Positions 5,011 through 56,984 of a stretch of 64,000 bases of DNA are shown one piece after another. The notes beneath the pieces were generated by a model. That model searched no databases, was not told the origin of the DNA, and saw only the letters and a program-made list of their open reading frames with translations. Made by a program: the position numbers and the translations under genes. This DNA comes from Paludibacteraceae bacterium (GTDB taxonomy: Bacteria > Bacteroidota > Bacteroidia > Bacteroidales > Paludibacteraceae). The stretch is taken from assembly GCA_017503075.1 (NCBI GenBank), contig JAFVTU010000009.1, positions 124,001 through 188,000 on the forward strand, given 5' to 3'. Position 1 is the first letter of the stretch; each line of letters starts with the position of its first letter.

Positions 5011-5060
5011 TACAATACTGCACCACACTACACAATACTATACGATACTATACTAACTAA
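5011..5060 (+). repeat. five-copy decamer array in the pgk leader
   Basis: Five consecutive 10-mers: TACAATACTG, CACCACACTA, CACAATACTA, TACGATACTA, TACTAACTAA. The array sits in the presumed 5' leader of pgk. The same CACCACACTACACAAT string recurs inverted at 51389-51407, and a related TACAC repeat lies inside queA. Confidence 0.8.
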
Positions 5061-5074
5061 TAAATTATACGATT

Positions 5075-6322
5075 ATGACAATTAATGATTACAAATTCGC
5101 TGGAAAGAAAGCGATTGTTCGCGTGGACTTTAATGTGCCATTGAACGAGAACGGACAAATCACAGACGACACCCGTATTCGCGGTGCGTTGCCAACCCTC
5201 AAACACATCCTCGAAGAGGGTGGTGCGCTCATCATCATGAGCCACATGGGTAAACCAAAAGGTAAAGTAGTGGCTAAATATAGCTTGAAGCAAATTGTTG
5301 ACGCTGTTAGTGCTGCACTCGGTGCTCCAGTACAATTCGCTGAGGATTGCGCTAAAGCTGCTGAGCAAGCTGCTGCCCTCAAAGCAGGTGAAGTGCTTCT
5401 TCTCGAGAACCTCCGCTACTATCCAGAAGAGGAAGGCAAACCAGTAGGTATCGACAAAGAGGATCCTGCATACGAAGAGGCTAAGAAAGCGATGAAGGCA
5501 AGCCAAAAAGAGTTCGCTAAGACTCTCGCTAGCTATGCTGACTGCTATGTAAACGACGCTTTCGGTACTGCTCACCGCAAACACGCTTCTACTGCAGTTA
5601 TCGCTGACTACTTCGATGCTGATAACAAGATGCTCGGCTACCTCATGGAGAAAGAGGTACAAGCTGTGGATAATATCCTGAGTAACATCAAGCGTCCTTT
5701 CACCGCTATTATGGGTGGCTCTAAGGTTTCTACCAAGATTGGTATCATCGAAAACCTTATGGACAAGGTGGACAACCTCATCCTCTGTGGTGGTATGACC
5801 TATACTTTCGCTAAAGCCAATGGTGGCGAGATTGGTAACTCTATCTGCGAGAACGACAAACTCGAGCTCGCACTTGATATCATCGCTCAAGCTAAGGCAA
5901 AAGGTGTGAACCTCGTATTGGCTACCGACTGCGTAGCAGCTGATGATTTCTCTAACGATGCTAACACTCAAATCTGCCCAAGCAACGCTATCCCAGAGGG
6001 TTGGGAAGGTGTGGACGCTGGTCCAGAGAGCCGCAAAGCATTTGCTGCAGCTATTGAAGGCGCTAAGACTATCCTTTGGAATGGTCCTGCAGGTGTGTTC
6101 GAGTTTGATAACTTCGCTGCTGGTTCTAAGGCAATCGCTGAGGCAATTGCTAAAGCTACCGACGAAGGTGCATATAGTTTGATTGGTGGTGGCGATAGCG
6201 TAGCTTGTGTGAACAAGTTCGGTATGGCTGACCGTGTAAGTTATATTTCTACTGGTGGTGGCGCATTGCTCGAGGCAATCGAGGGTAAAGTGCTCCCAGG
6301 TGTAGCAGCAATTAAAGGTTAA
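5075..6322 (+). CDS. pgk: phosphoglycerate kinase
   Basis: Glycolytic enzyme that moves a phosphate from 1,3-bisphosphoglycerate to ADP in the cytoplasm. 415 residues, normal for bacterial PGK. The N-domain signature VDFNVPL is near residue 18, the substrate-binding HMGKPKG near 58, NDAFGTAHR near 165, GGSKVSTKI near 214, and the nucleotide-binding GGGDSV near 372. The ATG at 5075 gives the standard short PGK N-terminus. Its own promoter is upstream and the DUF3127 gene starts 4 nt after its stop, so the two are probably co-transcribed. Codon use is G+C richer than the flanking intergenic sequence, as expected for a highly expressed gene. Confidence 0.98.
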
Positions 6323-6326
6323 GAAT

Positions 6327-6719
6327 ATGGAAATTTCAGGTAAGATTATACAAGTATTGCCAGAGCAAGGTGGCGTAAGTAAAACCTCTGGCAAGGAGTG
6401 GAAACTCCAAGCTTATGTGCTTGAGACACAGGAGCAATACCCACGCAAGGTGCATTTTGAGGTGTTTGGCGAGGACCGTATCAAAGCTAACCTATGCCAA
6501 TTGGATGATATTGTAACTGTTAGTTTCGATATTGAAAGCCGCGAGTTCAACGGCCGTTGGTACACTTCCATCCGTGCATGGAAGATTCAACAAGGCGTAG
6601 TTGACGCTGCTGCTCCACAAGTCGTTCCTGTTGCGCAACCAGTAGCTGCTCCACAAGCTAATGTGGAGACATTCGACGCTGCTGCAGGCGTAGATGAAAC
6701 TACTGATTTGCCATTCTAA
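6327..6719 (+). CDS. DUF3127 domain protein
   Basis: 130 residues. Residues 1-85 match the DUF3127 family, a Bacteroidota protein with an OB-like fold: the start MEISGKIIQVLPEQGGVSK, a central HFEVFGEDRI and FNGRWYTSIRAWKI. The remaining 45 residues are an Ala/Val/Gln linker ending in an acidic DETTDLPF tail; such a tail recalls single-strand-binding proteins, where DLPF-like ends recruit partners. That resemblance is an inference, not a demonstrated function. The start ATG at 6327 follows the pgk stop by 4 nt, which suggests translational coupling. Confidence 0.85.
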   Translation: MEISGKIIQVLPEQGGVSKTSGKEWKLQAYVLETQEQYPRKVHFEVFGEDRIKANLCQLDDIVTVSFDIESREFNGRWYTSIRAWKIQQGVVDAAAPQVVPVAQPVAAPQANVETFDAAAGVDETTDLPF

Positions 6720-6727
6720 TAGATAAT

Positions 6728-6820
6728 GGACGCGCCGAAGGCGCTATGGGACGCCGCAGAGCGGCTATTGGGTATTGGACGGCGTACCGCCTATTGGGTA
6801 TAGGACGCCTTTCGGGCTAT
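6728..6820 (+). repeat. array of four hairpin units between GGAC and TAT
   Basis: Four units in a row each read GGAC, a hairpin, then TAT. Hairpins: GCGCC-GAA-GGCGC (6732-6744), GCCGC-AGA-GCGGC (6753-6765), GGCG-TAC-CGCC (6781-6791), and a weaker GCCTTTCGGGC (6807-6817). The spacers after units 2 and 3 are TGGGTATTGGAC-like. Stems differ but pairing is kept. The array ends 2 nt before the next start codon. Confidence 0.85.
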
Positions 6821-6822
6821 AG

Positions 6823-7809
6823 ATGATGAAAAAGATTATCGGATGGATAATAGGATTATGCCTTCTGGCAGGTGGCGCTACTACTTGCGCCATCCGCTGG
6901 GAGGCGTGGTTTGGTAATCCGCCTGAGCCAGAATGGGTAGGGGACACTATCGATTATCAGTTCATCACTTTTGCCGACGATAGCGTTTTGTACGGTGCGC
7001 AGCAAGATACACTACAATTCCTTTTGCTAGGCGATATTCACAACTCGCTTACCAAGGCGCAGATGGCTCTGCTGGCTGTGCGCCATACGGATATAGACTT
7101 CTGGTCACAGACGGGCGACTGGATGGAGCGCCCGTATCTGTACTATGAACAGATGATGTACCAGTCGCTAGTAGGTACAGGTTGGGAGGCATTGCCCGTG
7201 GTGGCTATTCCGGGTAATCATGAATATCTTAAAGGGGTAGTAAAAACGTTGCCTGAGAAGTGGAAAAGCATTTTTCCTAATCCGCAGAATGGTCCTGCCA
7301 GGTTCTTAGGTACGACCTACTTTGTGGACTTCCCACAATTGCGACTGATAGCAATTGACACGGATGGTCTGCATCGTATGTCCGACTATACACAAGTAGC
7401 ATTTTGGCTAAAGAAAACTTTGCGTGAGGCAGGTGATAAGTTCACTATAGTGATGATGCACCACCCTGTTTATAGCACTGCTAAAGGCAGACAAAATCCG
7501 CTCATGTGGCTAACGTTTTACGGTGCTATGCGCGAAGCGGATGTGGTGTTCTCTGGTCATGACCATAACTATGCTCGCCGCACAGAGTATTATAAGGAGC
7601 GTTTTTGGAAGAAAGAAGAACCCACAGTGTTTATTGCTACCAACGCCTCCACGAAGAAGTATCCTGTGAAGGAAAATAATAAATACGAAACTTCGCTAGC
7701 GGGCGAACCTGTATATGAATATATCTTGGTTACGCCTAGTGCATTAAAGATAAAAACCTACACCCTCTTGTCAGGTGAACTGATAGATGAGGTAGAGATG
7801 GTGAAGTGA
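6823..7809 (+). CDS. calcineurin-like metallophosphoesterase, membrane-anchored or secreted
   Basis: 328 residues. Residues 1-22 form a hydrophobic signal or anchor. The dinuclear-metal motifs of the calcineurin-like phosphoesterase fold are in order: GDIHN (70-74), GDW near 90, GNHEY near 132, HHPVYS near 213 and GHDHNYAR near 245. It resembles the purple-acid-phosphatase-like group that acts outside the cytoplasm. The substrate cannot be told. Two adjacent ATGs (6823, 6826) are possible starts; both directly follow the hairpin array, so no separate ribosome site is visible. A rho-independent terminator follows the stop. Confidence 0.85.
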   Translation: MMKKIIGWIIGLCLLAGGATTCAIRWEAWFGNPPEPEWVGDTIDYQFITFADDSVLYGAQQDTLQFLLLGDIHNSLTKAQMALLAVRHTDIDFWSQTGDWMERPYLYYEQMMYQSLVGTGWEALPVVAIPGNHEYLKGVVKTLPEKWKSIFPNPQNGPARFLGTTYFVDFPQLRLIAIDTDGLHRMSDYTQVAFWLKKTLREAGDKFTIVMMHHPVYSTAKGRQNPLMWLTFYGAMREADVVFSGHDHNYARRTEYYKERFWKKEEPTVFIATNASTKKYPVKENNKYETSLAGEPVYEYILVTPSALKIKTYTLLSGELIDEVEMVK

Positions 7810-7829
7810 GATGAGTCAATGAAATAAAA

Positions 7830-7860
7830 CAACCAACTGAGAGGCTGGTTGCTTTTTGTT
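7830..7860 (+). terminator. terminator after the metallophosphoesterase gene
   Basis: CAACCA (7830-7835) pairs with TGGTTG (7846-7851), followed by CTTTTTGTTTT. It ends the plus-strand pgk run and faces the end of the symporter gene. Confidence 0.75.
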
Positions 7861-7885
7861 TTATTTGTAAGGAAGAGAATTAGTC

Positions 7886-9334: not shown

Positions 9335-9340
9335 ATTACT

Positions 9341-9393
9341 TGAGGTTCAATGGCGCGTTGCGCCGTTCAAAAGTTGTTCAATATAGTTCAGAG
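9341..9393 (-). repeat. TTGAAC repeat array with mini-hairpin, upstream of the symporter
   Basis: On the minus strand the units CTGAACTATA, TTGAACAACT and TTGAAC, then a hairpin, then TTGAACC follow one another. The hairpin GGCGC-AAC-GCGCC (9352-9364) is perfect with a 3 nt loop. The same TTGAACNNNN decamer occurs in five clean copies at 44786-44835. Confidence 0.8.
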
Positions 9394-9398
9394 TCGTT

Positions 9399-10583: not shown

Positions 10584-10604
10584 GGTATTTTAATGTTTTT
10601 GGTG

Positions 10605-10761: not shown

Positions 10762-10800
10762 TTCCCCCGTAGCTACGTTCGCTCAATGCAGCCCATACTC

Positions 10801-10867
10801 TCGCGTTCGGCAATTGACGCGCACAGAACTCGCTTGGCGAGTTAAAAGCGATCAATGCCTCCGCTCT
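10801..10867 (+). repeat. dispersed element, copy A (exchanged central hairpin)
   Basis: Flanks TCGCGTTCGGCAATT (10801-10815) and TCAATGCCTCCGCTCT (10852-10867) match a second copy at 54509-54577. The centre is a perfect hairpin, AACTCGC-TTG-GCGAGTT (10827-10843), with a sequence unrelated to the central hairpin of the other copy. Confidence 0.8.
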
Positions 10868-11045
10868 CCCCACTCACTCACGAAGTTCGTGGGGACCCCG
10901 TAATATATCGCAATTTTTTTCAAAAAAACGCTTGACACCCTATTCATCCACTATCCAATACTTCGCTTTCAAGCGAGCTTGAGTGAGTACAAAATCTAGG
11001 ATGAGATAGATAAATCTATAATTTTTCAAAAAAAGCTCGCTTGAC

Positions 11046-11076
11046 TTGCGTATGTGCATTTTTTGTCGTACCTTTG
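11046..11076 (+). promoter_or_regulatory. promoter of the GH20 gene
   Basis: TTG (11046-11048), 20 nt, TACCTTTG (11069-11076). It overlaps an upstream in-frame TTG, which excludes that codon as the start of the GH20 protein. Confidence 0.8.
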
Positions 11077-11138
11077 CAGAGAATAATTATCTACGGAAGA
11101 CGGTCTTAATAGACTTTCTGCAGCAAAACACATACACC

Positions 11139-17315: not shown

Positions 17316-17402
17316 TTGTTTGTTTTGATTTATGGACTACAACTACACGAGTTGCATGTCCGGGTTAATATTAATGGTATGCTTTTTACACGAAAAAGCC
17401 CG

Positions 17403-17433
17403 CAAAGGTACTACTTTTTTTTTACATATGCAA
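17403..17433 (-). promoter_or_regulatory. promoter of rpsP
   Basis: Minus-strand TTG (17431-17433), 20 nt, TACCTTTG (17403-17410). Confidence 0.8.
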
Positions 17434-17459
17434 ATATTTTGTAAAAATAATGTATTTTA

Positions 17460-19085
17460 CTAGTTTTCAACCAACACAAAATCAATGAGTTTTCGTTCAA
17501 CATCAACCTTGGTTACCTTAACTCGTACAGGATCGGATAGTGTGTATATTTTACCGCTGCGTGCAGCGATCAAGCAATAATTTTCCTCGTCAAATTGCAT
17601 ATAATCATTGCGTTCGATGGTGCGAATAGGCACTAATCCTTCTGTCATAGTGTCGGTGAGTTGTACGAATAGTCCAAACTCGGTAACGCCACTGATAATG
17701 GCATCAAACTCCTCGTTTAGATGCTGGCTTATCCACTTGGCGTGCATCTCCTTGATGGAGTCGCGTTCCGCCATTTGTGCGGCTAATTCGCATTCAGAAC
17801 AATGCACGCAAGCTTCTTCGAGTTCCTCTTTTTCGTGACGGCAGAGAGCTTTTGACTGCAATAGGTAACGTGAGACGAGGCGATGTACCATCATATCTGG
17901 ATAGCGACGGATAGGGGATGTGAAGTGGGTGTAATAAGGGAAAGCCAATCCGTAATGTCCGATGTTATCGGTTGAATATACCGCTTTGGCCATTGCACGG
18001 ATAGTTAGTGTTTCCACCAATGATTGGCATGCTTTACCTTGACAGTTGTCGAGCAATGCGTTGATATGCTTATGGGTGGTTTTGCTGTTGGATGAGGTCT
18101 TGAGATGCAATCCAAAGCGTTTGATGAATGTGCTGAGTCGTCCGATTTTCTCTGGATCGGGATTATCATGCACACGATAAACAAAGGGCTTGGTAGGTTC
18201 CTTGGTTGTTGTGTCGTTTTCTTTTTTCTTTCGTCCAATTTCGGTGGCTACAATGCGATTTGCAAGAAGCATAAACTCTTCGATCAAATGATTGGTATCT
18301 AGAGAGTTGTGGAAGATAATATCAGTAGGATTACCATGTTCATCTAGGCGGAAGTGCACTTCTGGTGTTTCGAAGTTGATTGCTCCTTGGCGGAAGCGAT
18401 TGGCACGCAATTGTTGAGCAAGATTGTTTAATATGGTGATGGCTTGTTTCAGTGCTTCGTTTTCACCTCTTGCTTCGATGTTATCTAGTAAATCTTGTGC
18501 TTGACGATAGGTTAATCGGTAGTTAGAACAGATAATAGTTCTGCATATTTTATGACGAATTACCTTTGCATTTTGATCCATTTCTACCACTACAGACATA
18601 CAGAGTTTGTCTTCGTTTGGTCGTAAACTGCATAGTTCGTTGCTCAATTGTTCGGGTAGCATAGGAATCACTCGGTCCACAAGATAAACGCTAGTTCCCC
18701 GTTGATATGCTGCATCATCCAATGCAGTTTGCTCTTGTACATAGTGGGTAACATCTGCGATATGAATGCCGATCTGATAGTTTCCGGTATCAAGAATGCG
18801 GAAGGATAGTGCGTCATCAAAGTCTTTTGCTTCGTCAGGATCAATGGTAAACGTGAGCGTATCTCTCATATCACGTCGACGCAATATTTCCGAGTGAATA
18901 GAATCTTGTGACAGTCGTTGGGCTTCTTTTAGTACATCCTCGTCGAATCCGGAGGGTAGTACATATTCGTCGGGTTTATTTTCAACAAGATTATTTGTAT
19001 GTTTGTTGGCTTGTTGATTTATGTTTTTTCGTCGTGTGGCTTTCTCACGACGAAGTCGTTTGGCTATGAGATCTTTAGTTTTCAT
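17460..19085 (-). CDS. rnr: RNase R/RNase II-type 3'-5' exoribonuclease lacking cold-shock domains
   Basis: 541 residues. The RNB catalytic domain is intact: IDPDEAKDFDDAL (about 81-93) carries the metal-binding Asp residues, followed by HIADVTHYV, SVYLVDRVIPMLPEQLSNELCSLRP and a complete C-terminal S1 domain. RNase R of Bacteroidales is normally about 715 residues with two N-terminal cold-shock domains. Here they are replaced by about 40 residues, strongly basic (KTKDLIAKRLRREKATRRK). Only 195 nt separate it from the divergent pyrE, so the missing domains are not hidden upstream. It probably degrades structured RNA less selectively; that is inference. Confidence 0.88.
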   Translation of the reverse strand: MKTKDLIAKRLRREKATRRKNINQQANKHTNNLVENKPDEYVLPSGFDEDVLKEAQRLSQDSIHSEILRRRDMRDTLTFTIDPDEAKDFDDALSFRILDTGNYQIGIHIADVTHYVQEQTALDDAAYQRGTSVYLVDRVIPMLPEQLSNELCSLRPNEDKLCMSVVVEMDQNAKVIRHKICRTIICSNYRLTYRQAQDLLDNIEARGENEALKQAITILNNLAQQLRANRFRQGAINFETPEVHFRLDEHGNPTDIIFHNSLDTNHLIEEFMLLANRIVATEIGRKKKENDTTTKEPTKPFVYRVHDNPDPEKIGRLSTFIKRFGLHLKTSSNSKTTHKHINALLDNCQGKACQSLVETLTIRAMAKAVYSTDNIGHYGLAFPYYTHFTSPIRRYPDMMVHRLVSRYLLQSKALCRHEKEELEEACVHCSECELAAQMAERDSIKEMHAKWISQHLNEEFDAIISGVTEFGLFVQLTDTMTEGLVPIRTIERNDYMQFDEENYCLIAARSGKIYTLSDPVRVKVTKVDVERKLIDFVLVEN

Positions 19086-23631: not shown

Positions 23632-23684
23632 TCGGTATGTGTTGAGTGTTTTGTGATATAGTATTTGTTCTATATACATTCGGT

Positions 23685-23753
23685 AATCACTAACTAATCA
23701 CTAACTAATGTTGTGAACTATAAGTGATAAGTGATGAGTAATATATGAGTAAT
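23685..23753 (+). repeat. AATCACTAACT duplication and AAGTGAT heptamers before miaB
   Basis: AATCACTAACT occurs twice in tandem (23685-23706). Heptamers follow: AAGTGAT (23722, 23729) and GAGTAAT (23736, 23747). The inverse complement of the first part, TAGTTAGTGATTAGTTAGTG, is found at the pdxB start (43810-43829). Confidence 0.8.
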
Positions 23754-23755
23754 AT

Positions 23756-43809: not shown

Positions 43810-43832
43810 TAGTTAGTGATTAGTTAGTGATT
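43810..43832 (+). repeat. TAGTTAGTGAT duplication supplying the pdxB start codon
   Basis: The 23 nt repeat directly follows the panC stop. The GTG start codon of pdxB and its second codon ATT lie inside it. It is the inverse complement of the duplication at 23685-23707. Confidence 0.8.
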
Positions 43833-44789
43833 CAGCAAGTTATAATAGACAAAGGCATACCTTTTTTGGAGGGAGTATTGCCCCCTGAGATAAACGCCAT
43901 TTATCTTTCTCCCGAAGAGATTACTGCCGAAACTGTGCGCGAGGCAGATGCACTCTTCGTTCGCACGCGTACGCGAATAAATGAGGAGTTACTCCGTGGG
44001 AGCAAAGTACGCTTTGTCGCTACTGCCACCATTGGTTTTGATCATATTGACCAAGACTATTGCCGCAAGGCAGGCATACATTGGGTGTCGTGTCCTGGCT
44101 GCAATGCACAAGCGGTTTGCGACTATGTTGAAGAAGCCATTTCTACGATTAAAGCGAACAAAACAGACCTTACAATAGGCATAGTTGGTTATGGTCATGT
44201 TGGCAAACTCGTAGCACAAATGGCAAATCGTAATGGCTATCGCGTGCTACTATCCGACCCGCCACTGGGTATAGGCATGTCCTTGGAGAAGTTGGCTCCA
44301 CAATGCGATGTGCTTACCTTCCATACGCCACTTACCCACGATGGCGAATATCCTACCTACCATCTTTGTAATGCTGATATCTTACGCCTCTGCAAACCAG
44401 ATGCCCTCATTATCAATGCCGCTCGCGGAGGTGTCATCGACGAACAAGCCCTCCTCTCAACACTCAACACTCAACATTCAACATTAAACATTAAAGCTGC
44501 CATTGACTGTTGGGAAGATGAACCAAATATCAACACCGCCTTATTGGAAAAGGTCAATCTGGCATCTTTTCACATCGCAGGATACTCTATAGAAGGCAAA
44601 ATGCGCGCCAGTGAGATGTGTTTACGGGCTTTTTGCGAATTTTTCTCGCTCCCGATTTTGTCAATCAACAAAAAAGTAGTACCTTTGCAGGGTGATTCGG
44701 CACCGGGGTGGCTCTGCCGTATCTCTGACCAACTCAAAGCCCAACCCAATCAATTTGAACAGCTGCGGAAATCATACCCGCTACGTTGA
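43827..44789 (+). CDS. pdxB: 4-phosphoerythronate dehydrogenase
   Basis: 320 residues. Second step of the DXP-dependent pyridoxal phosphate route. D-2-hydroxyacid dehydrogenase marks: FVRTRTRINEELL near 45, ATIGFDHID near 69, the NAD-binding GIVGYGHVGKLVAQ near 117, NAARGGVIDEQALL near 196 and the catalytic His in FHIAGYSIEGK near 252. The start GTG lies in a repeat, residues 211-222 come from a heptamer array, the -33/-7 boxes of a promoter lie in its 3' part, and the stop TGA is inside a decamer array. It ends at QLRKSYPLR, a few residues short of relatives. Confidence 0.9.
   Translation: MIQQVIIDKGIPFLEGVLPPEINAIYLSPEEITAETVREADALFVRTRTRINEELLRGSKVRFVATATIGFDHIDQDYCRKAGIHWVSCPGCNAQAVCDYVEEAISTIKANKTDLTIGIVGYGHVGKLVAQMANRNGYRVLLSDPPLGIGMSLEKLAPQCDVLTFHTPLTHDGEYPTYHLCNADILRLCKPDALIINAARGGVIDEQALLSTLNTQHSTLNIKAAIDCWEDEPNINTALLEKVNLASFHIAGYSIEGKMRASEMCLRAFCEFFSLPILSINKKVVPLQGDSAPGWLCRISDQLKAQPNQFEQLRKSYPLR
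44454..44495 (+). repeat. in-frame heptamer array in pdxB
   Basis: CTCTCAA, CACTCAA, CACTCAA, CATTCAA, CATTAAA, CATTAAA: six heptamers that change stepwise. They encode the LSTLNTQHSTLNIK segment just before AAIDCWEDEP. Confidence 0.88.
44658..44687 (+). promoter_or_regulatory. promoter inside the 3' part of pdxB, for proS
   Basis: TTG (44658-44660), 19 nt, TACCTTTG (44680-44687), preceded by AAAGTAG as in other promoters here. It would start a transcript about 155 nt before the proS ATG. Confidence 0.65.
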
Positions 44790-44835
44790 ACAAATTTGAA
44801 CAACATTGAACCATTTTGAACAATATTGAACTAAA
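44786..44835 (+). repeat. five-copy TTGAACNNNN decamer array
   Basis: TTGAACAAAT, TTGAACAACA, TTGAACCATT, TTGAACAATA, TTGAACTAAA. The first unit contains the pdxB stop TGA (44787-44789). The array fills most of the gap before proS. Related, inverted and hairpin-interrupted copies lie at 9341-9393. Confidence 0.9.
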
Positions 44836-47584: not shown

Positions 47585-47614
47585 AGTTTCTCCACTATGG
47601 GCGAAAATCGGCTG

Positions 47615-47645
47615 CAAAGGTACTACAAAAAATGCAAATACGCAA
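47615..47645 (-). promoter_or_regulatory. promoter of tRNA-Glu and rpsT
   Basis: Minus-strand TTG (47643-47645), 20 nt, TACCTTTG (47615-47622). Identical over 34 nt to the greA promoter. Confidence 0.85.
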
Positions 47646-47682
47646 ATATTTTTAGAAAAAAATGTATTTTTGTGTTAAAAAA

Positions 47683-47713
47683 TTGCATATTTCCGCAGAA
47701 AATAGTACCTTTG
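47683..47713 (+). promoter_or_regulatory. promoter of the outer-membrane barrel gene
   Basis: TTG (47683-47685), 20 nt, TACCTTTG (47706-47713), 24 nt before the ATG. Confidence 0.8.
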
Positions 47714-48508: not shown

Positions 48509-48754
48509 GGAATATATACACCACTTGTCATTAAATCCCCCTCGCCGCATTTGATAAGATTCAGCGGTTGCGTTTTGGGATGTTCCCTTCTTTGGGGCCC
48601 CCGCGAGCTTCGTGAGCAAGTGGGGAGAGGAGAAACGGCGGCAACCTCAACGAGCCAAGCGAGTTCATTGTTGCAAGCCTGTTTCGACGAAAGCATAATA
48701 CACCCCCGAGCACAAGCCGAGTGCTTATGGGATATTAGCTAACTATAGTATTAA
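48509..48754. other. hairpin-rich intergenic stretch before the TPP riboswitch
   Basis: 246 nt without a supported gene. It contains GGGA-TGT-TCCC (48577-48587), a CCCCC...GGGG pairing around 48597-48625, and CAACGAGCCAAGCGAGTT (48648-48665), a diverged reverse complement of the AACTCGCTTGGCGAGTT hairpin of the 10801 element. A 63-codon frame here is unsupported. Somewhere in it must lie a promoter for the riboswitch transcript, but I do not see a clear one. Confidence 0.55.
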
Positions 48755-48824
48755 CCAACAGGGGTGCCTCTCACGGCTGAGATTATACCCTTTGAACCTG
48801 GGCAGGTAATGCTGCTAAGGAAGT
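48755..48824 (+). promoter_or_regulatory. TPP riboswitch (THI element)
   Basis: The conserved THI pieces are all present in order: CAGGGGTGCC, GGCTGAGATTATACCC, TTTGAACCTG, GCAGGTAATGCTGC and AAGGAAGT. The ATG of the TonB receptor is the next codon but for one base, so the ribosome-binding stretch (AAGGAAG) is inside the aptamer's last strand. Ligand binding would then block translation start directly. Confidence 0.95.
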
Positions 48825-51107
48825 ATGAAAAAATTCTCTTTCTTTCTCTCCGCCACTTTGGCGGCAAGTGTCGTTGCACATGCGCAAACGGACACCATCA
48901 CCCTTACCCGACAATTGGATGAGGTCACAATCAACGCGCCAGTGGCGCAAGTCACTAACAATCACACAGCGCTCACCAATGAGCAGCTCAATCAGAGCAA
49001 CACGGGGCAGAATCTTCCCTTCTTGCTCTCTGCTACGCCTGCTCTCGTGGCTACCAGCGACGATGGACTAGGAGTAGGGTACACCTATTTCCGCATCCGT
49101 GGTACCGATCACACCCGTATCAACATGACGCTCAATGATGTCCCGCTCAACGATAGCGAGAGTCAAACTGTCTTTTGGGTCAATATGACCGACATGGCTA
49201 GCAGCATGTCCTCGCTTGATGTCCAACGCGGTGTAGGCACCTCCACCAACGGTAGCGCCTCCTTCGGTGCCAGCATCAACATGTCCACCTCATCACCTAA
49301 TCACCTCATCACCTCATCGCCTGATAACCTCATCGCCTCATCCGTAGGCTTATCCTTCAACGGCGGTATGTACAACACTTTCCGCGAGATGGTGAATGCC
49401 CATATCGTGCTACCTAACCAATGGCGAGCTAATGCCCGATTCTCCAAAGTCAATTCCGATGGCTTCCTCTACCGCACTGCCTCCGACCTCTATTCCTATT
49501 ACGGCGATCTTGGGTGGTATGGCGATAAAACAGAAGTCGTTGGTCGCTTCTTTGGTGGCAGCGAGAAGACAGGCATGGGTTGGGATGGCGTGGATTATAA
49601 CACTGCCTATGGCATCAATGGTGCCGACCGACGCTATAACCCTGCAGGCGAATATACCACTACTGCTGCTGACGGCTCCGATTCTACTGCCTACTATCCC
49701 AACCAAACCGACAACTACGCCCAACAGCATGCACAACTATCTGTTCTCCATCGCTTCACGCCCCAATGGTCACTCTCTGCCACTGCCCACTATACCCATG
49801 GCGCGGGTTACTACGAGCAATACAAACGCAAGAAACTCTCCTATTGGGGATTATTGGGCAATGGGCAATTGGCTATAGGTAATGGGGATAGAAAATCCTA
49901 TGGCATGTACCGCAAGCAACTCGACAACCATTTCTTTGGCGGAGTGGTGGCTGCTAAGTATATTTCTGAGCTAGTAGATGTGCAGTTTGGTGGCGCAGCC
50001 AACTACTATACGGGTGACCACTTTGGCACGCTGCATTACCTCGAAGACTCGCTTATCCTGCCTATCAACTACGAATACTACCGCAACGAAGCCAAGAAGA
50101 CAGATGCGAATATTTATGCCAAAGCCAACTGGCGCATTATCAATCGCGCACAAGAGCAACTCTCGCTGTATGCCGACCTCCAATACCGCTATGTGCGCTA
50201 TGAGCGCAATGGTCTTAACGATGAAGATATGACCGACTTGCCTCTGGAGGTCAACTTCCATTTCTTCAACCCAAAGGCGGGCTTGACCTACCAAAACCGT
50301 GGTCACTTGCTCGCTGCTTCTTTCGCTATTGCCAACCGTGAACCTAGTCGCAACAACTACAAGGAGAATGTCGTCTACGACGCTTCTACCGGCGAATATA
50401 CCGGCCTGCCTCATGCCGAACGCCTCTACGACTACGAGCTCGGCTATACCTATTCCCATCCTCGCTTTGCTGTCGGCGCCAACCTCTATTTCATGGACTA
50501 CGACAACCAACTCGTCCTCACAGGCGAGTACAACGATGTGGGTGCGTATAAGACCAAGAATGTCAAGGACTCGTATCGTATGGGAGCCGAACTTACCGCA
50601 GGGGTCAAGATCACCAACTGGCTGCGTTGGGACGCTAACCTCGTGGCTTCACGCAACAAGATCCTCAATTACCACCAGTATATCGACCTATACGACGACC
50701 AAGACAATTGGAATTGGGTAGGGCAGGACTCTGTAGTAGGCACTACCACCATCGCTTTCTCGCCAACCCTTACTGCTTCCTCCCTCTTCACTTTTGATGT
50801 GGCAGGTTTCACGGCTACTGTTCAGACGAATGTGGTAAGCAAGCAGTATTTGGACAATACCCAGGACGAGAACGCCATGCTCCGTGCATATTCCACCACC
50901 AACCTCAATCTCCAATACCTATTGCCAATAGCCAATAGCCAATGGCCTACTATCCGCCTCTTGTGCCAGATTAACAATATCTTCAATGCCAAGTATGCCA
51001 ATAATGGTGGTGCGGAGGCCAGTAGGTTTATGGATGGCAGCCGCTGCTGTTGGTATTATGCCCAGGCGGGTATCAATGTCCATGCTGGATTTATAGTTGT
51101 ATTCTAA
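48825..51107 (+). CDS. TonB-dependent receptor, probably for thiamin
   Basis: 760 residues. Signal peptide to HAQ (about 21), a plug domain (about 32-140: LDEVTINAP, YFRIRGTDHTRINMTLNDVPLNDSE, SLDVQRGVGTSTNGSASFGASINM) and a 22-strand barrel. Position directly behind a TPP riboswitch points to thiamin or a precursor as substrate, as for the riboswitch-controlled Omr receptors of Bacteroidetes. No pnuT or tnr3 gene follows. Three short repeat arrays are inserted in frame (49288-49343, 49856-49890, 50924-50944), each in a loop-like place. Ends before a strong terminator. Confidence 0.92.
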   Translation: MKKFSFFLSATLAASVVAHAQTDTITLTRQLDEVTINAPVAQVTNNHTALTNEQLNQSNTGQNLPFLLSATPALVATSDDGLGVGYTYFRIRGTDHTRINMTLNDVPLNDSESQTVFWVNMTDMASSMSSLDVQRGVGTSTNGSASFGASINMSTSSPNHLITSSPDNLIASSVGLSFNGGMYNTFREMVNAHIVLPNQWRANARFSKVNSDGFLYRTASDLYSYYGDLGWYGDKTEVVGRFFGGSEKTGMGWDGVDYNTAYGINGADRRYNPAGEYTTTAADGSDSTAYYPNQTDNYAQQHAQLSVLHRFTPQWSLSATAHYTHGAGYYEQYKRKKLSYWGLLGNGQLAIGNGDRKSYGMYRKQLDNHFFGGVVAAKYISELVDVQFGGAANYYTGDHFGTLHYLEDSLILPINYEYYRNEAKKTDANIYAKANWRIINRAQEQLSLYADLQYRYVRYERNGLNDEDMTDLPLEVNFHFFNPKAGLTYQNRGHLLAASFAIANREPSRNNYKENVVYDASTGEYTGLPHAERLYDYELGYTYSHPRFAVGANLYFMDYDNQLVLTGEYNDVGAYKTKNVKDSYRMGAELTAGVKITNWLRWDANLVASRNKILNYHQYIDLYDDQDNWNWVGQDSVVGTTTIAFSPTLTASSLFTFDVAGFTATVQTNVVSKQYLDNTQDENAMLRAYSTTNLNLQYLLPIANSQWPTIRLLCQINNIFNAKYANNGGAEASRFMDGSRCCWYYAQAGINVHAGFIVVF
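49288..49343 (+). repeat. in-frame octamer array, seven copies, in the TonB receptor
   Basis: CCTCATCA, CCTAATCA, CCTCATCA, CCTCATCG, CCTGATAA, CCTCATCG, CCTCATCC. Encodes a Ser/Pro/Leu/Ile stretch between plug and first barrel strand. Confidence 0.88.
49856..49890 (+). repeat. in-frame GGGCAAT heptamer array in the TonB receptor
   Basis: GGGCAAT, GGGCAAT, TGGCTAT, AGGTAAT, GGGGATA. Encodes LGNGQLAIGNGDR between KLSYWGL and KSYGMYRKQ. Confidence 0.82.
50924..50944 (+). repeat. in-frame GCCAATA heptamers in the TonB receptor
   Basis: GCCAATA, GCCAATA, GCCAATG. The reverse complement TATTGGC belongs to the ATTGG family of the 6728 and tatD arrays. Confidence 0.72.
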
Positions 51108-51109
51108 AC

Positions 51110-51146: not shown

Positions 51147-51497
51147 TAATGAGATTGTAGCAACTACTTTATTTCAATTCCCATAACAGTATATATCTTT
51201 CCGTTATGCATAATCAGCAACTGATTATCATGGAGAATCTTCTGATAAGAAGATGGCGGTGAGAATCTGTGTAACTCCCAACCTCACATCCCTACCATTG
51301 TTTATTAAAACTCACACGCGCACGTGCGCGAATTTTAGAAGATAGATGCATGGTTGGGAGGTTGGGAGCTAGTAGGGGTTGAGTTGCATTGTGTAGTGTG
51401 GTGTAGCGCAAAGGTAGCGCAAGGGTAGCGGTTATTGTTTAGTTTTAGAGTTTTAAGTCGTATTACAACACTACCCTATTCTACATAACAAAACAAA
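51147..51497. other. non-coding stretch between the two ATCACCTGT terminators
   Basis: 351 nt without a gene. Contains the palindrome CGCGCACGTGCGCG (51316-51329), a repeated GTTGGGAG (51354 and 51363 areas) and a TACAC/TAGCGCAA repeat (51385-51440) whose reverse complement shares CACCACACTACACAAT with the pgk leader array. Confidence 0.65.
51385..51440 (-). repeat. TACAC-family repeat array
   Basis: On the minus strand CGCTACCCTTG, CGCTACCTTTG, CGCTACACCACACTACACAAT follow one another. Related to 5011-5060 and to 56722-56766 in queA. Confidence 0.7.
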
Positions 51498-51527: not shown

Positions 51528-51548
51528 TGTTGATAGCAATCTATTAGA

Positions 51549-52019: not shown

Positions 52020-52021
52020 AC

Positions 52022-52603: not shown

Positions 52604-52611
52604 AACTACAA

Positions 52612-53088: not shown

Positions 53089-53144
53089 AATAATCTAAAA
53101 TTTTGCAAGTTTAACAATTCACGTTCTGCACAATGCAAAATAGA

Positions 53145-53972
53145 TTATTTCTTTTGTGCTGCGTCGTATTCAACCACGAGGTCGAGAAGGCTGATAGAGC
53201 TATCTTCCATCTCGTTTACGAGACCCTCGATCAAGCTAAGGATGTAGTTGTAGAATACTTGAAGAATAATAGCGATGATCAAACCGAGGAGGGTTGTCAA
53301 CAAAGCCACCTTGATACCACCAGCCACAACGGTAGCAGAGATATCACCTACTTGTTGGATCTTATCGAACGCTTGGATCATACCGATAATGGTACCCAAG
53401 AATCCCAAAGATGGAGCGATAGAGATGAAGAGAGAAATCCAAGAGAGGTTCTTCTCCAAAAGACCGAGTTGAACACCACCGTAAGAAGCTACAGTCTTCT
53501 CAACTACGTCAACGCCCTCGCTATAACGGCTCAAACCTTGATAGAAGATACTTGCTACAGGACCACGAGTGTTGCGGCAAACATCCAAAGCTGCCTCAAT
53601 ACCACCGTTCTTCAATGCTTTCTCTACCTCAGCCAAGAGAGCCTTGGTATTAGTTTTGCTCAAGCTCAAATAGATAATACGCTCAATACAGAGTGCCAAA
53701 CCAAATACCAAGCAGAGGAGAGTTGCAGCCATAAAGCCAGCACCACCTTCAATAAACTTAGTTTTGAGAGTCTTGTGGAGAGCTACGATAGCGCCTTCCT
53801 CAGCCTCTTCTACTACTTCTTCAGCCTCAACTACAGGAGCTTCAACAGCTGCAGAATCTACAGTTACTTCCTCAGCTACAGGAGCAGCCTCAGCTGCGTC
53901 TTGAGCCATTACTGCAACGCTTCCGAAAGAAAACATTGCCAACACCGTTAGGGTTGCAAAAATTTTTTTCAT
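53145..53972 (-). CDS. exbB: MotA/TolQ/ExbB proton channel protein
   Basis: 275 residues. A signal-like N-terminus (to VMAQ, about 24) and an Ala/Glu-rich acidic segment (25-65) precede three membrane helices; the family core lies at about 130-260 with GLLEKNLSWISLFISIAPSLG near 170 and a GGIKVALLTTLLGLIIAI stretch near 220. ExbB pentamers and ExbD drive TonB-dependent uptake, for example by the receptor at 48825. First gene of the four-gene operon. Confidence 0.93.
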   Translation of the reverse strand: MKKIFATLTVLAMFSFGSVAVMAQDAAEAAPVAEEVTVDSAAVEAPVVEAEEVVEEAEEGAIVALHKTLKTKFIEGGAGFMAATLLCLVFGLALCIERIIYLSLSKTNTKALLAEVEKALKNGGIEAALDVCRNTRGPVASIFYQGLSRYSEGVDVVEKTVASYGGVQLGLLEKNLSWISLFISIAPSLGFLGTIIGMIQAFDKIQQVGDISATVVAGGIKVALLTTLLGLIIAIILQVFYNYILSLIEGLVNEMEDSSISLLDLVVEYDAAQKK

Positions 53973-54029
53973 ACGATTTGTTTTTAGTATTAAATTGTTT
54001 ATAATTATTTAATTCGCTTTCCATGTTGG

Positions 54030-54352
54030 TGGCTCGCTGTGCGAGCGTTAATGGCAGCAGAGCTGCGAAATGTGGTTACGCTCACGCTTCACGAAAGTGG
54101 TTCACTTCGTTCACGTTACGTGAGGATTCGAGGGCACCGACCTCGCTACGCTCGCCCACCTCGAATACCCACAGTCTGCCACGGGCATCCTTGAGAGAGG
54201 GGGATTTCTTCGTAATCCCAACAAACTGCCACAAGAGGGGATTCGAGGGCACCGACCTCGCTACGCTCGCCCACCTCGAATACCCACAGTCTGCCGATGG
54301 GGAACCTTGGGGGGATTTCTTCGTAATCCCCACAGTCTGCCACGGGCATCCT
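54030..54352. repeat. composite repeat: mini-hairpins plus 57 bp direct repeat
   Basis: Between exbB and tRNA-Ser. First come GCTCGC-TGT-GCGAGC (54032-54046), GCAGC-AGA-GCTGC (54054-54066) and AAGTG-GTT-CACTT (54095-54107). Then an exact 57 bp direct repeat (54124-54180 and 54239-54295) with ATTCGAGG...CCTCGAAT ends, a hairpin module GGGGATT-TCTTCGT-AATCCC in two copies (about 54200 and 54311), and a third copy of CCCACAGTCTGCCACGGGC (54329 area). A 177-codon plus-strand frame here runs into the tRNA and is not a gene. Confidence 0.85.
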
Positions 54353-54419
54353 GTGCAAATCTTTTTACTCTCAATCTCACTTGAGCAAGCTCAGATTCGA
54401 TTGTTCGTAAAAATCTTTG

Positions 54420-54507
54420 CGGAGAGAGGGGGATTCGAACCCCCGAAACCCTTTTGGAGTTTACACGCTTTCCAGGCGTGCCTCTTCAACCACTCGAGCA
54501 TCTCTCC
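54420..54507 (-). tRNA. tRNA-Ser (anticodon GGA)
   Basis: 88 nt class II tRNA. Acceptor GGAGAGA with TCTCTCC, discriminator G. Anticodon stem CACGC/GCGTG with loop CTGGAAA, long variable arm (AAACTCCAAAAGGGTTT), T-arm GGGGGTTCGAATCCCCC. CCA is not encoded. The dispersed element B starts 2 nt upstream of its 5' end. Confidence 0.95.
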
Positions 54508-54508
54508 T

Positions 54509-54577
54509 TCGCGTTCGGCAATTTCGCGCATTGACCAACGACAATATCGTTGTTAGGGCGCTCAATGCCTCCGCTCT
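54509..54577 (+). repeat. dispersed element, copy B
   Basis: Flanks TCGCGTTCGGCAATT (54509-54523) and TCAATGCCTCCGCTCT (54562-54577) as in copy A at 10801. The central hairpin here is CAACGA-CAATA-TCGTTG (54536-54552). Confidence 0.82.
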
Positions 54578-54764
54578 ATCCTCGAAGCCACGTGCTTCTC
54601 GGATGTTTTTTAAGAACTTATAGGATTGTCGCATAAACGACGCTTGTCAGCGTCCTTGGGGCGACCGCGATTCCTTCTCCTAACTCGGATTTTCAATGAA
54701 CATTTTTGGCATAGGCGCGGAAGCGTTTTCGTTCGCGAAACGACACAATACGCCTAATGACCCG
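54578..54764. other. further hairpins between element B and the tRNA-Ser promoter
   Basis: No gene. GAAGC-CACGT-GCTTC (54584-54598) is nested in ATCC...GGAT; GACGCT-TGTC-AGCGTC lies at about 54647-54662; a CGTTT...AAACG pairing with TTCG core at about 54725-54742. These would be in the 5' leader of the tRNA-Ser transcript. Confidence 0.6.
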
Positions 54765-54797
54765 CAAAGGTACAAAAAAAAATTGATATATGCACAA
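54765..54797 (-). promoter_or_regulatory. promoter of tRNA-Ser
   Basis: Minus-strand TTG (54795-54797), 22 nt, TACCTTTG (54765-54772). It lies 258 nt upstream of the tRNA, separated from it by the repeats. Confidence 0.55.
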
Positions 54798-54822
54798 TAA
54801 TTTGCACTTTTTTTGTGTTTTT

Positions 54823-55644
54823 TCACAAATTTATAACAAAAAGTGCTTTTGCGTTGGCTGTTGTTACTTCATTCACATGCTCTACAGAGCATTGATACAC
54901 CTCTGCCAATCGCTCCGCTACATGCCACATCCACTTGCTCTCGTTGCGCTTACCACGATGAGGGACAGGTGCCATATAGGGGGCATCCGTCTCCAATACC
55001 AATCGCTCCAATGGAATACCTACTAAGTGCTCTGCCAACTTACAATTCTTGAAAGTTAGCACACCACCAATACCCAAATAATACCCCATGTCCACCACCT
55101 GTTTTGCCACCTCATGACTGCCGCTGAAGCAGTGCATCACACCTTTTACTGTAGGGAACTCGCGAAGGATGTTGAGGGTGTCTTCTGTGGCATCGCGGCT
55201 ATGAATCATCACAGGCAAATCATATTGCTCTGCCCAACGCATTTGCTCACGCAATGCCTCATGTTGCTGCTCCTTGAAAGTGGTATCCCAATGGTAATCC
55301 AAGCCTATCTCGCCGATGGCGATGAGTTTTCTTGCGGATATTGGACGCTCCGCTATTGGATGAGGGACGCCCTTCGGACTATTGGACATACGCTCATCGA
55401 CGGCTGCTTTGAGAACTTGCAGTTGTTCTTGCCAGTCTTCTTTTACGTTCTCTGGGTGCAAACCCAATGCAGGAAAGAGATATTGGGGGTATTTATCACA
55501 CACCTCCAACACATCTTTTACTGAAGTCTTATCTACACCAGGCACCAGAATGGCTTCTACGCCATTCGCCTGTTGGTCAGCTAAAAATGCGGCTAACTCT
55601 TCCGCATACTGCGGGTCATCTATATGGCAGTGGGTGTCGATCAT
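54823..55644 (-). CDS. tatD: TatD-family metal-dependent hydrolase
   Basis: 273 residues. Metal ligands of the TatD fold: THCHID near 3, GEIGLDYHWD near 105, MIHSRDA near 141, MHCFSGS near 165 and ETDAPYMAP near 217. Members act as 3'-5' DNases or D-aminoacyl-tRNA deacylases. Residues about 80-100 (SNSPKGVPHPIAERPISARK) before the LIAIGEIG strand are encoded by the ATTGGAC repeat and have no counterpart in usual TatD proteins. The start codon is 19 nt from another repeat. Confidence 0.92.
   Translation of the reverse strand: MIDTHCHIDDPQYAEELAAFLADQQANGVEAILVPGVDKTSVKDVLEVCDKYPQYLFPALGLHPENVKEDWQEQLQVLKAAVDERMSNSPKGVPHPIAERPISARKLIAIGEIGLDYHWDTTFKEQQHEALREQMRWAEQYDLPVMIHSRDATEDTLNILREFPTVKGVMHCFSGSHEVAKQVVDMGYYLGIGGVLTFKNCKLAEHLVGIPLERLVLETDAPYMAPVPHRGKRNESKWMWHVAERLAEVYQCSVEHVNEVTTANAKALFVINL
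55334..55387 (+). repeat. ATTGGAC repeat inside tatD
   Basis: GGAC-GCTCCGC-TATTGG and GGGAC-GCCCTTCGGAC-TATTGGAC follow one another. The second unit differs by two bases from the fourth unit of the 6728 array (GCCTTTCGGGC). Confidence 0.82.
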
Positions 55645-55650
55645 TTTGTT

Positions 55651-55726
55651 GGTTCACTGCGCTCACGTTGTATGCTTCGCGTTATTATGTTATTTGTCGC
55701 TGTACGACGTTATTTGCTTCGCGTTA
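55651..55726 (+). repeat. GTTATTT repeats with hairpins between tatD and queA
   Basis: GGTTCACTGCGCTCACGTT (55651-55669) matches GGTTCACTTCGTTCACGTT at 54099-54117 with three changes. GTTATTAT, GTTATTT, the hairpin GTCG-CTGTA-CGAC (55696-55708), GTTATTT and GCTTCGCGTTA follow. The queA stop codon (55710-55712) lies inside. Confidence 0.75.
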
Positions 55727-56984
55727 GGATGCTGCTGTCGCCGTAGCTGAGGAAGCGGAAATCGTGCGAGAGGGCATAGTCGTAGATAGTATGCCAATCG
55801 CCTCCTACAAACGCACTTACTAACAACAATAGCGTTGATTTGGGTTGGTGGAAATTCGTAATCAGTTGATCTACTACGCGGAACTGATATCCGGGCTTAA
55901 TCATTATCTGCGTTTCGGCATGCAAGACGTCTTGCTTCGTACTATCCAAATAATCTACTATTGTCTGCAATGCCTCGCGTGTAGAAAGTGTATATTCTTT
56001 CTCGTAGGGCTTAAATTGGGCGACGGAAAGTGTGGAATCCCCGGAATCTGGAATCCGGTCTCCAATACACAACTTTTCACCGAGGAAATATAGACTCTCC
56101 AAGGTACGCATACTGGTGGTGCCTACGGCTACAATATGTCCGAGATTACTGATAATCGTTTGAATAGTGGCTTTGGGCACAGCAATAATCTCCGTATGCA
56201 TCGTATGTTGGTTGGCATCTGCCACTTTGACTGGCTGGAAGGTGCCTGCACCTACGTGCAAGGTGACTTCGGCGGTCTGTATACCCTTTTGACGTAAGCC
56301 GTTGAGCACATTATCTGTAAAATGAAGTCCTGCGGTAGGGGCTGCTACCGAACCTTTGATACGCGAATAAACAGTCTGATAAGTAGTTTTGTCGCTCTCT
56401 TCGGTCTTGCGATTAAGATATGGAGGGATTGGCAACTCGCCTACAGCATCGAGAATCTCAGCAAAGCTTACAGCCACTCCTTTCCAAGAAAATTTCACAG
56501 CAAAGGTATTGCCTGTTTGTTCGCCTTTCTCGGCAAATAAAGTTACCTCTTCGCCTGAGGGCAACACGACAGGTAGAGACAACGCACCTGACTTCCATTT
56601 CTTGGCATTGCCAATCATACATTTCCATGTGCAACCGTCTGTACTACCTAAGGATAATTGATAGTCGTGTGGCTCCAATGGTTCGAGGCAAAAAACCTCT
56701 ATGCGCGCGCCGAGAGTATTGTGTAGCGGTGGTGTAGATGTGGTGTAGGGTTGTGTAGCGGTAGTTTTATGAAACTCTAGACGAGCTTGTATTACGCGCG
56801 TGTTATTATATATGAGTAGCGAGCCTATAGGCAGGTATTTGCCTACGTTATAAAAGCAATCTTCGCTCACTTGTCCATCGCGGTAAACAAGCAGTTTGCT
56901 CTGGTCGCGCTCAGCTAACGGATATTTGGCTATCCGTTCGTCGGGTAGGGGATAATTATATTCTTCTATAAGGATTTCTTCCAT
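55710..56984 (-). CDS. queA: S-adenosylmethionine:tRNA ribosyltransferase-isomerase (QueA family)
   Basis: 424 residues, on the long side for QueA. Makes epoxyqueuosine in tRNA. Family marks: NNTRVIQARL near 59, KGSVAAPTAGLHFT near 210, HVGAGTFQPV near 243, MHTEI near 260, VGTTSMRTLES near 287 and NFHQPKSTLLLLVSAF near 380. Residues about 74-88 (TATQPYTTSTPPLHN) are encoded by a TACAC repeat and interrupt the usual ARLEF...ARIEV order. The last residues (LTRSK) and the stop come from the GTTATTT repeat. Its first 19 nt overlap the methyltransferase gene upstream. Confidence 0.92.
   Translation of the reverse strand: MEEILIEEYNYPLPDERIAKYPLAERDQSKLLVYRDGQVSEDCFYNVGKYLPIGSLLIYNNTRVIQARLEFHKTTATQPYTTSTPPLHNTLGARIEVFCLEPLEPHDYQLSLGSTDGCTWKCMIGNAKKWKSGALSLPVVLPSGEEVTLFAEKGEQTGNTFAVKFSWKGVAVSFAEILDAVGELPIPPYLNRKTEESDKTTYQTVYSRIKGSVAAPTAGLHFTDNVLNGLRQKGIQTAEVTLHVGAGTFQPVKVADANQHTMHTEIIAVPKATIQTIISNLGHIVAVGTTSMRTLESLYFLGEKLCIGDRIPDSGDSTLSVAQFKPYEKEYTLSTREALQTIVDYLDSTKQDVLHAETQIMIKPGYQFRVVDQLITNFHQPKSTLLLLVSAFVGGDWHTIYDYALSHDFRFLSYGDSSILTRSK
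56722..56768 (-). repeat. in-frame TACAC repeat inside queA
   Basis: On the minus strand CCGCTACACAA, CCCTACACCA, CATCTACACCA, CCGCTACACAA. Same family as 5011-5060 and 51385-51440. Confidence 0.8.

What the first reader, a model, noticed from the sequence alone, without database searches (positions are those of the whole stretch)
5011..56768. Genome-wide layer of short tandem repeats invaded by perfect mini-hairpins
More than ten loci in 64 kb carry tandem 7-, 8-, 10- or 11-mers of a few families (TTGAACNNNN, CTGAAC, ATTGGAC/GGGCAAT, CA[CT]T[CA]AA, TACAC, TAGTGAT). At several, a perfect hairpin with a 4-7 bp stem and usually a 3 nt loop (GAA, AGA, TAC, AAC, TTG, AGT, TGT, GTT) sits between conserved units, and the stem sequence differs from place to place. 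Single such hairpins are expected by chance (a 5 bp stem with a 3 nt loop about once per kb), but runs of three or four within 100 nt between conserved flanks are not. They resemble the short tandem repeats of cyanobacteria, but the embedded variable hairpins are new to me. Possible causes: slippage plus template switching at repair, or an unknown element.
Basis: partly seen in the sequence, partly recalled or inferred. Interest (0 to 1): 0.8.

Follow-up and report, generated by a model that had tools for sequence, protein, structure and literature searches.

The report
Variable mini-hairpins inside bacterial heptamer repeats
A group of gut bacteria carries many short tandem repeats with tiny hairpins set between the units; the hairpin stems differ from copy to copy yet nearly always still pair, and the arrays come and go between relatives, which points to a little-known kind of REP-like mobile or self-made DNA.

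Summary
The window lies in a 2.06 Mb Bacteroidales genome (nearest named records found: Paludibacteraceae). Short tandem repeats are real: 11 arrays in the window against 0.35 in Markov sequence; 93 against 1-3 in 464 kb of the genome. Hairpins are not enriched generally (84; null 61-92). They belong to definite cassettes: a heptamer repeat (CCAATA/CCTATA or CTAAAC type), then G-X-loop-X'-C, then GTYC, then the next heptamer. X differs between copies but still pairs: 36 of 39 TATRGGAC cassettes have at least 4 outer pairs (shuffle mean 0.94); 131 of 139 CTAAAC cassettes do (shuffle mean 4.1). Spacers between neighbours are 8 or 15 bp in 52 of 54 cases, and neighbours share an arm in 1 of 54 (about 3 expected), so duplicating the neighbour is not the main way arrays grow. 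The CTAAAC form occurs in 10 of 61 genomes of the genus and 0 of 40 other families. Arrays are mostly absent in relatives, or another repeat sits there. Neither a Y1 transposase nor a reverse transcriptase was found in all carriers. Best reading: REP-like, structure-defined mini-cassettes; the process that spreads them is unknown.

The parts
6727..6821 (+). Hairpin-cassette array of four units (GGAC-G-X-loop-X'-C-TAT); hairpins at 6732-6744, 6753-6765, 6781-6791 and 6807-6817, all with different stems (the fourth pairs perfectly over 3 bp only); between a DUF3127 gene and a metallophosphoesterase gene
   Evidence: three of the four pass the stem-4 rule; relative G014 has only units 3 and 4 (unit 3 hairpin identical), G039 none; genes by Pfam
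54032..54123 (+). Run of four hairpins (GCTCGC/TGT, GCAGC/AGA, AAGTG/GTT, TCACG/TTA) with looser TGG...CG flanks
   Evidence: one of 2 sites in the window with three or more loop-3 hairpins in 100 nt (null mean 0.2). RNA fold not better than shuffles, z -0.07
44786..44831 (+). TTGAACNNNN array (10-mer) between a 2-hydroxyacid dehydrogenase gene and proS
   Evidence: absent in front of proS in L021 and L022 and in G014 and G039
44457..44492 (+). TCAACAT heptamer array inside the dehydrogenase coding sequence
   Evidence: G014 has a different short repeat at the same place, G039 has none found
43810..43832 (+). TAGTTAGTGAT 11-mer array just after the pantoate ligase gene
   Evidence: absent in G014; G039 has a longer array of the same family on the other strand in the same spacer
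23684..23755 (+). Two 11-mer arrays (TAATCACTAAC; ATGAGTAATAT) and an ATAAGTG heptamer pair in front of a radical SAM gene
   Evidence: best ungapped match in G014 0.50 and 0.55, where other repeat-like sequence lies
5011..5053 (+). TACAC-type 10-mer array in front of the phosphoglycerate kinase-like gene
   Evidence: G014 has a shorter related stretch
49286..49342 (+). CACCTCAT 8-mer array inside a TonB-dependent receptor gene
   Evidence: G014 shares part of it, G039 shows no such array
50912..50947 (+). CCAATAG heptamer array (one of the heptamer families that carry cassettes) inside the same receptor gene
   Evidence: no array found in G014
51403..51430 (+). GTAGCGCAAAG 11-mer array
56721..56762 (-). 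GTGTAGCGGTG array inside the queA-like coding sequence
   Evidence: absent in G014 and G039
57236..57266 (-). TTCCGTT heptamer array inside the rlmL-like coding sequence
   Evidence: no array found in G014 and G039
10797..10900 (.). Dispersed repeat with two perfect hairpins (10827-10843, 10879-10891)
   Evidence: several 90-95% copies in G014 and G039

Best explanation
The hairpins are a REP-like family of very small, non-autonomous DNA cassettes, defined by structure more than by sequence. A unit is G-X-loop(about 3)-X'-C followed by GTYC, and it sits between heptamers of a short tandem repeat. Shown: strong pairing with many different stems, the 8 + 7n spacing, occurrence at many unrelated loci on both strands and inside predicted genes, presence or absence between relatives, and neighbours that are seldom copies of each other. 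Inferred: arrays grow by successive arrival of different units from a genome-wide pool at the heptamer junction, through a process that recognises the hairpin and its tag on single-stranded DNA and tolerates any stem that pairs. The enzyme is unknown. Most copies are probably neutral.
For: Pairing: 36 of 39 (17 distinct stems, recount) and 131 of 139 against shuffle means 0.94 (max 5) and 4.1 (max 15); counted once each, 82 of 90 distinct CTAAAC inserts, 31 distinct arms; 39 of 47 distinct 13-nt inserts perfect over 5 bp against 6.3 (max 14) when 3' arms are permuted. Mirror-arm control 1 and 2 against 40 and 92 cassettes in the G000 and G014 pieces. Spacers 8 (44) or 15 (8) of 54; adjacent arms identical in 1 of 54, about 3 expected. 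Recurrent stem-loops, e.g. GGCG-gaa-CGCC in 4 cassettes of the G000 sample and 8 of G014. Of 51 ortholog comparisons (many of them reciprocal), 36 show no cassette by the same rule in the interval; an array shared by G039 (L139) and G014 (C18) keeps three units in order with their stems. In one interval of about 360 bp G014 and G000 carry different cassettes in opposite orientation.
Against: No candidate enzyme: Y1_Tnp has no match at E 0.001 in carriers G014, G038, G039, G054 and G058, RVT_1 none in G000, G014, G039 and G054. Empty sites are not clean: flanking heptamers change too, or another repeat family is there. Two shared cassettes differ on both arms (C7:119553, C7:70937), which pure insertion does not explain. 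Fixed outer bases and 89-90% G+C arms in G000 and G014 mean that sequence matters too. The cassette rule also picks up chance matches (e.g. in G039, 4 cassettes with arms 59% G+C).
Confidence: 0.4

Rival explanations
1. Replication error. Within heptamer arrays the nascent strand folds back and copies itself for a few bases (template switching), then realigns on the next heptamer. This makes new perfect short palindromes and repairs mismatched ones. Weak hairpin cleavage (SbcCD) would let them persist.
For: Loops are mostly 3 nt (90 of 131 CTAAAC cassettes with stem 4 or more) and stems near perfect. Two orthologous cassettes differ on both arms. SbcD profile over the cut-off in 1 of 21 same-genus genomes, while the control rings in 13 of 14 known genomes, over the cut-off in 8. 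Published: template switching can create and maintain hairpins (PMC8794818, passages read).
Against: The same boundary words (TA..GTYC) and the same stem-loops recur at many unrelated loci, which local errors do not give. Missing SbcD does not separate carriers from others, and the one genome with SbcD, G054, is a carrier. SbcC was not tested. MutS is present (matched in 21 of 21, over the cut-off in 20). At C7:119553 arms and loop all differ, which one loop inversion does not explain.
Confidence: 0.3
2. Exchange between arrays: gene conversion or template switching between distant arrays with shared heptamers moves and shuffles existing hairpins. No hairpin-specific process is needed; pairing is kept by selection or by repair.
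For: Recurrent stem-loop types and a duplicated block of three units in G014 (L159:8412-8594). Shared heptamers between loci.
Against: Does not readily explain arrays at sites where relatives have none, nor the origin of the stems.
Confidence: 0.15
3. RNA elements (attenuators, terminators, mRNA-end protectors) under selection for a hairpin in the transcript.
For: Strongly paired, G+C-rich stems near start and stop codons; 19 of 23 cassettes between co-directional ORFs have the GGAC orientation (9 of 13 loci, counted by eye; simple ORF caller). One G014 array stretch folds better than shuffles, z -4.17.
Against: Both orientations occur, 9 of 37 cassettes lie inside predicted ORFs, most are not found at the orthologous site, the window array folds no better than shuffles (z -0.27), and Rfam has no match to the arrays searched.
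Confidence: 0.1
4. Chance hairpins in repeat-rich sequence.
For: Overall hairpin counts are close to random.
Against: Shuffle, permutation and mirror controls for the cassettes.
Confidence: 0.02

Closest known systems
REPs with GTAG or CGTC tags (Di Nocera et al. 2013, PMC3733652)
   Same: Short dispersed palindromes with a short tag, variable stems, mostly between genes and sometimes in genes, uneven between relatives; the CTAAAC cassette mostly has GTA(G) on one side and (C)GTYC on the other. That paper finds no dedicated transposase for CGTC REPs and reports them from Bacteroidetes too.
   Different: Here stems are mostly 4-6 bp with a fixed G-C outer pair and 3-nt loops (CGTC REPs: 8-9 bp, A-T in the first two pairs, 4-5 nt loops, CCA tail), many distinct stems stand in one tandem array, and units sit in a heptamer repeat with 8 + 7n spacing.
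TAACTGA heptamer direct repeats of Beggiatoaceae, cyanobacteria and some Bacteroidetes (PMC4679880)
   Same: Heptamer tandem arrays between genes and near start codons, patchy between relatives, including two sets in Paludibacter propionicigenes.
   Different: One heptamer word; the passages and the one section I read describe no variable hairpins between units. Here there are many repeat families, and arrays in coding sequence.
Mobile palindromes of organelle DNA (double-hairpin elements, yeast GC clusters, sponge RHEs, ultra-short invasive elements)
   Same: Tiny hairpin elements without genes, presence or absence between relatives (from listings and passages; further details recalled).
   Different: Organelles, not bacteria; I know of none phased in heptamer arrays (recalled).
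Template-switch hairpins (PMC8794818)
   Same: A single replication error can create or mend perfect stems.
   Different: In the passages read it is shown for RNA genes, not for dispersed tandem cassettes with conserved flanks.

Membership tests
GTAG REP with RAYT transposase | Unpaired GTAG tag beside a palindrome | tested here: inconclusive
   CTAAAC cassettes mostly have GTAG, but its G pairs with the C of CGTYC; CCAATAG and CCTATAG cassettes have ATAG
GTAG REP with RAYT transposase | A RAYT (Y1 transposase) in the genome | tested here: not met
   No Y1_Tnp match at E 0.001 in carriers G014, G038, G039, G054, G058; weak matches in G000 (25.1 bits, L166) and G025 (21.6), matches in G049 and G056
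CGTC REP | CGTC tag at one end | tested here: met
   CGTYC follows the stem by the search pattern itself, so this was selected for; of 278 such inserts 37 pair well against 1.9 in shuffles
CGTC REP | 8-9 bp stem, A-T in first two pairs, 4-5 nt loop, CCA tail | tested here: not met
   Stems mostly 4-6 bp, outer pair G-C (fixed by the pattern), loops mostly 3 nt; the tail was not tested; definition from PMC3733652, section on CGTC families
Heptamer short tandem repeats (TAACTGA type) | Several copies of a heptamer in tandem, many loci, often by start codons | tested here: met
   for tandem heptamers at many loci; words differ from TAACTGA, and closeness to start codons was seen but not counted
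CRISPR array | Conserved repeats with unique spacers, cas genes, foreign spacers | not tested
   The variable part is self-paired; cas genes and spacer origin were not searched
Integron attC arrays | Integrase and attC sites between gene cassettes | not tested
   Recalled only; no room for genes between the hairpins
Known structured RNA | Match to an Rfam family | tested here: not met
   Window: only tRNAs at gathering score; L159, L161, L214: only the small SRP RNA

The most novel reading that the evidence does not exclude
A bacterial mobile DNA whose unit of inheritance is a shape: any short G+C-rich hairpin with the right boundary can be inserted, in heptamer phase, between units of a short tandem repeat, so that arrays collect ever different hairpins, somewhat as a CRISPR array collects spacers. 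A single-strand-acting enzyme not yet described would do it, and would also seed and replace the short tandem repeats themselves.
Probability: 0.2. Interest if true: 0.88.

Novelty: new variant of a known kind. Interest (0 to 1): 0.66.

Why it matters
How short tandem repeats and tiny palindromes arise and spread in bacteria is an old open question. Here one genus offers a natural series: carriers and non-carriers, colinear genomes with empty and filled sites, and an array with nine hairpins. It makes duplication, template switching and insertion separable by simple strain comparison, and it warns annotators that conserved enzymes in these bacteria carry repeat-coded inserts.

Tried and rejected
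General hairpin enrichment in the window: within the null range. RAYT or other Y1 transposase as the mobiliser: no match in five carriers. Reverse transcriptase: no match in four carriers, present in four carriers and three others. Loss of mismatch repair: MutS matched in 21 of 21 genomes. SbcD: over the cut-off in 1 of 21 (a carrier, G054); 11 others have weaker matches, and the two I read as ORFs (G000, G014) look like membrane metallophosphoesterases by eye (a family scan failed through wrong coordinates, and was not repeated). RNA function: orientation 9 against 4 loci and mixed folds.

A strict family-free finder of flank-sharing, different-stem hairpin pairs found 14 pairs at 8 loci in G000 (one locus looks like chance) and 34 pairs at 15 loci in G014, but 0 in 80 kb of G039, 0 in 984 kb of named Bacteroidota and 0 in 321 kb from 14 other genus genomes, two of which (G058, 20 kb, and G049, 3.6 kb) are carriers by the CTAAAC pattern. 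Its mirror control was 0 in G000 and G014 but 20 pairs at 2 low-complexity loci in the named set. It missed the window array too, so it is insensitive, and absence outside the genus was tested only with it and with the two patterns.

Papers: PMC3733652 (outline, part 1 of 8 of the text, sections 6, 7 and 8, and part 1 of 2 of the discussion), PMC4679880 (passages and section 12), PMC8794818 and PMC7218506 (passages); all others in search listings only. Nothing like variable-stem tandem cassettes appeared in the listings, which cover open-licence papers only.
Full report
What was checked. The window is G000:C28:124001-188000 of a 2.06 Mb, 30-contig genome. The nearest named records returned for the proline-tRNA ligase are Paludibacteraceae MAGs (97 and 96% protein identity; records of the genome itself may be left out there). 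I read 400 kb more of the genome and parts of relatives G014 (colinear with the window from 4937 on) and G039.

The repeat layer is real. With a fixed rule (score 44 or more, selected periods) the window has 11 arrays against 0.35 expected and the 464 kb sample 93 against 1 to 3; 33 of the 93 lie inside ORFs of a simple caller that covers 94% of the bases, 60 outside or across an edge. By the same rule the density is 20.5 per 100 kb in the genome's 400 kb outside the window, 15.4 in G014, 13.5 in G039, and 9.7 to 10.2 in named Bacteroidota loci, so short repeats are common in the stretches looked at and about twice as dense in this genome.

The hairpins are specific. Overall hairpin counts exceed chance slightly or not at all. 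The signal lies in cassettes. In the 464 kb, of 278 TA-[G..C]-GTYC inserts 37 have a stem of 4 or more and a loop up to 6, against 1.9 (maximum 7) in shuffles. Pattern TATRGGACGN{9,13}CTATRGGAC has 39 matches in 5 of 101 genomes, all of the same genus, and none in the reversed control; the pattern fixes only the outer G and C, yet 36 of 39 pair over 4 or more bases, with 17 distinct stems. Pattern CTAAACNRTAGN{7,13}CGTYCNCTAAAC has 181 matches in 10 of 101 genomes, all of the 61 of the same genus, reversed control 0; of the 150 that were listed, 139 have inserts of 11 nt or more and 131 of these pair over 4 or more. Copies inherited by several genomes count more than once there; counted once each, 82 of 90 distinct inserts pair, with 31 distinct arms. 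Among the 47 distinct 13-nt inserts 39 are perfect over 5 bp against 6.3 by permutation, with G-C to C-G swaps at three of the five pairs.

Anatomy. Between neighbouring cassettes lie 8 bp (44 of 54), 15 bp (8) or 29-30 bp (2): one G plus whole heptamers for the two main classes. Arms are 89-90% G+C in the G000 and G014 pieces. Neighbours share an arm in 1 of 54 pairs against about 3 expected from the pool. One G014 array has nine hairpins by eye, including a duplicated block of three (L159:8412-8594), so duplication occurs but is not the rule.

Turnover. Of 22 cassette loci in the G000 sample, 13 had two-sided orthologs in the G014 or G039 pieces. In the wider comparison 51 pairs were made from 86 loci (reciprocal pairs counted twice), and 36 had no cassette in the interval by the same rule. 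The window array 6727-6821 has four units; G014 keeps units 3 and 4, G039 has none. Some shared cassettes keep their stems (window unit 3; C7:121380, inside an ORF; the G039-G014 array), while C7:119553 and C7:70937 differ on both arms. At several sites G014 has a different short repeat in the same place: C7:71919 and C7:73016 a 9-mer type, C7:72188 and C7:71299 other heptamer-like types. For tandem arrays in general, 28 of 105 arrays could be compared (37 comparisons); 2 reached 0.75 ungapped match, and by eye two more are partly shared (C28:173286, C7:119570). The ungapped measure understates sharing.

What could do it. Carriers without any Y1_Tnp match (G014, G038, G039, G054, G058) and without RVT_1 (G000, G014, G039, G054) speak against these two families as a general requirement, within the limits of genomes 87 to 99.6% complete. 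SbcD is over its cut-off in 1 of 21 same-genus genomes (8 cassette carriers and 13 others), while 13 of 14 control genomes ring; but the one genome with it, G054, is a carrier. SbcC was not searched. Weak hairpin cleavage may let hairpins persist, but it does not separate carriers from others.

Reading. The neighbours' different stems, the heptamer phase, the recurrent stem-loop types at unrelated loci, both orientations and the empty sites fit successive insertion of structure-defined units better than local duplication. Fold-back copying explains perfect pairing and double-arm changes well and the recurrent boundaries badly. I put insertion at 0.4, template switching at 0.3, exchange between arrays at 0.15 and RNA function at 0.1. 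The two leading processes may both act.

Known kinds. The cassettes look like REPs, and their tag resembles that of CGTC REPs, but stem length, first pairs and loops do not meet that family's definition in PMC3733652, and several carriers show no RAYT. The heptamer layer resembles TAACTGA repeats (PMC4679880). The combination was not seen in the search listings named under Tried and rejected.

Noticed in passing
window 48750-48839: TPP riboswitch-like element upstream of a TonB-dependent receptor gene; 51.1 bits against a gathering score of 54.3.
   Followed up: partly
window 10797-10900, 10963-11079, 17372-17462, 47605-47692, 54508-54609: Dispersed repeats of about 40-100 bp with many copies (roughly 70-100% identity) in G014 and G039; several look like Bacteroidetes promoter regions (recalled motif), one contains hairpins.
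   Followed up: no
window 44457-44492, 49286-49342, 50912-50947, 56721-56762, 57236-57266: Short tandem repeats inside conserved genes (dehydrogenase, TonB receptor, queA, rlmL) code for peptide stretches that relatives lack, replace or partly share.
   Followed up: partly
L166:754-1863: The only Y1 transposase-like match of the genome (369 aa ORF, 25.1 bits) lies next to an ORF that looks like a restriction specificity subunit (by eye) and has GCTCGGCG..CGCCGAGC inverted repeats inside and beside it.
   Followed up: no
G014, L146 about 1566-1637: Another cassette-like family, TAACAG-hairpin-CGGTC, in the spacer after the pgk-like gene; the window has no such array there.
   Followed up: no
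G000 contigs C13 and C29; C4 and C26: Identical cassettes at the same spacing, and matches of equal score at contig ends, suggest duplicated contigs in the assembly, so genome-wide counts may be slightly high.
   Followed up: no
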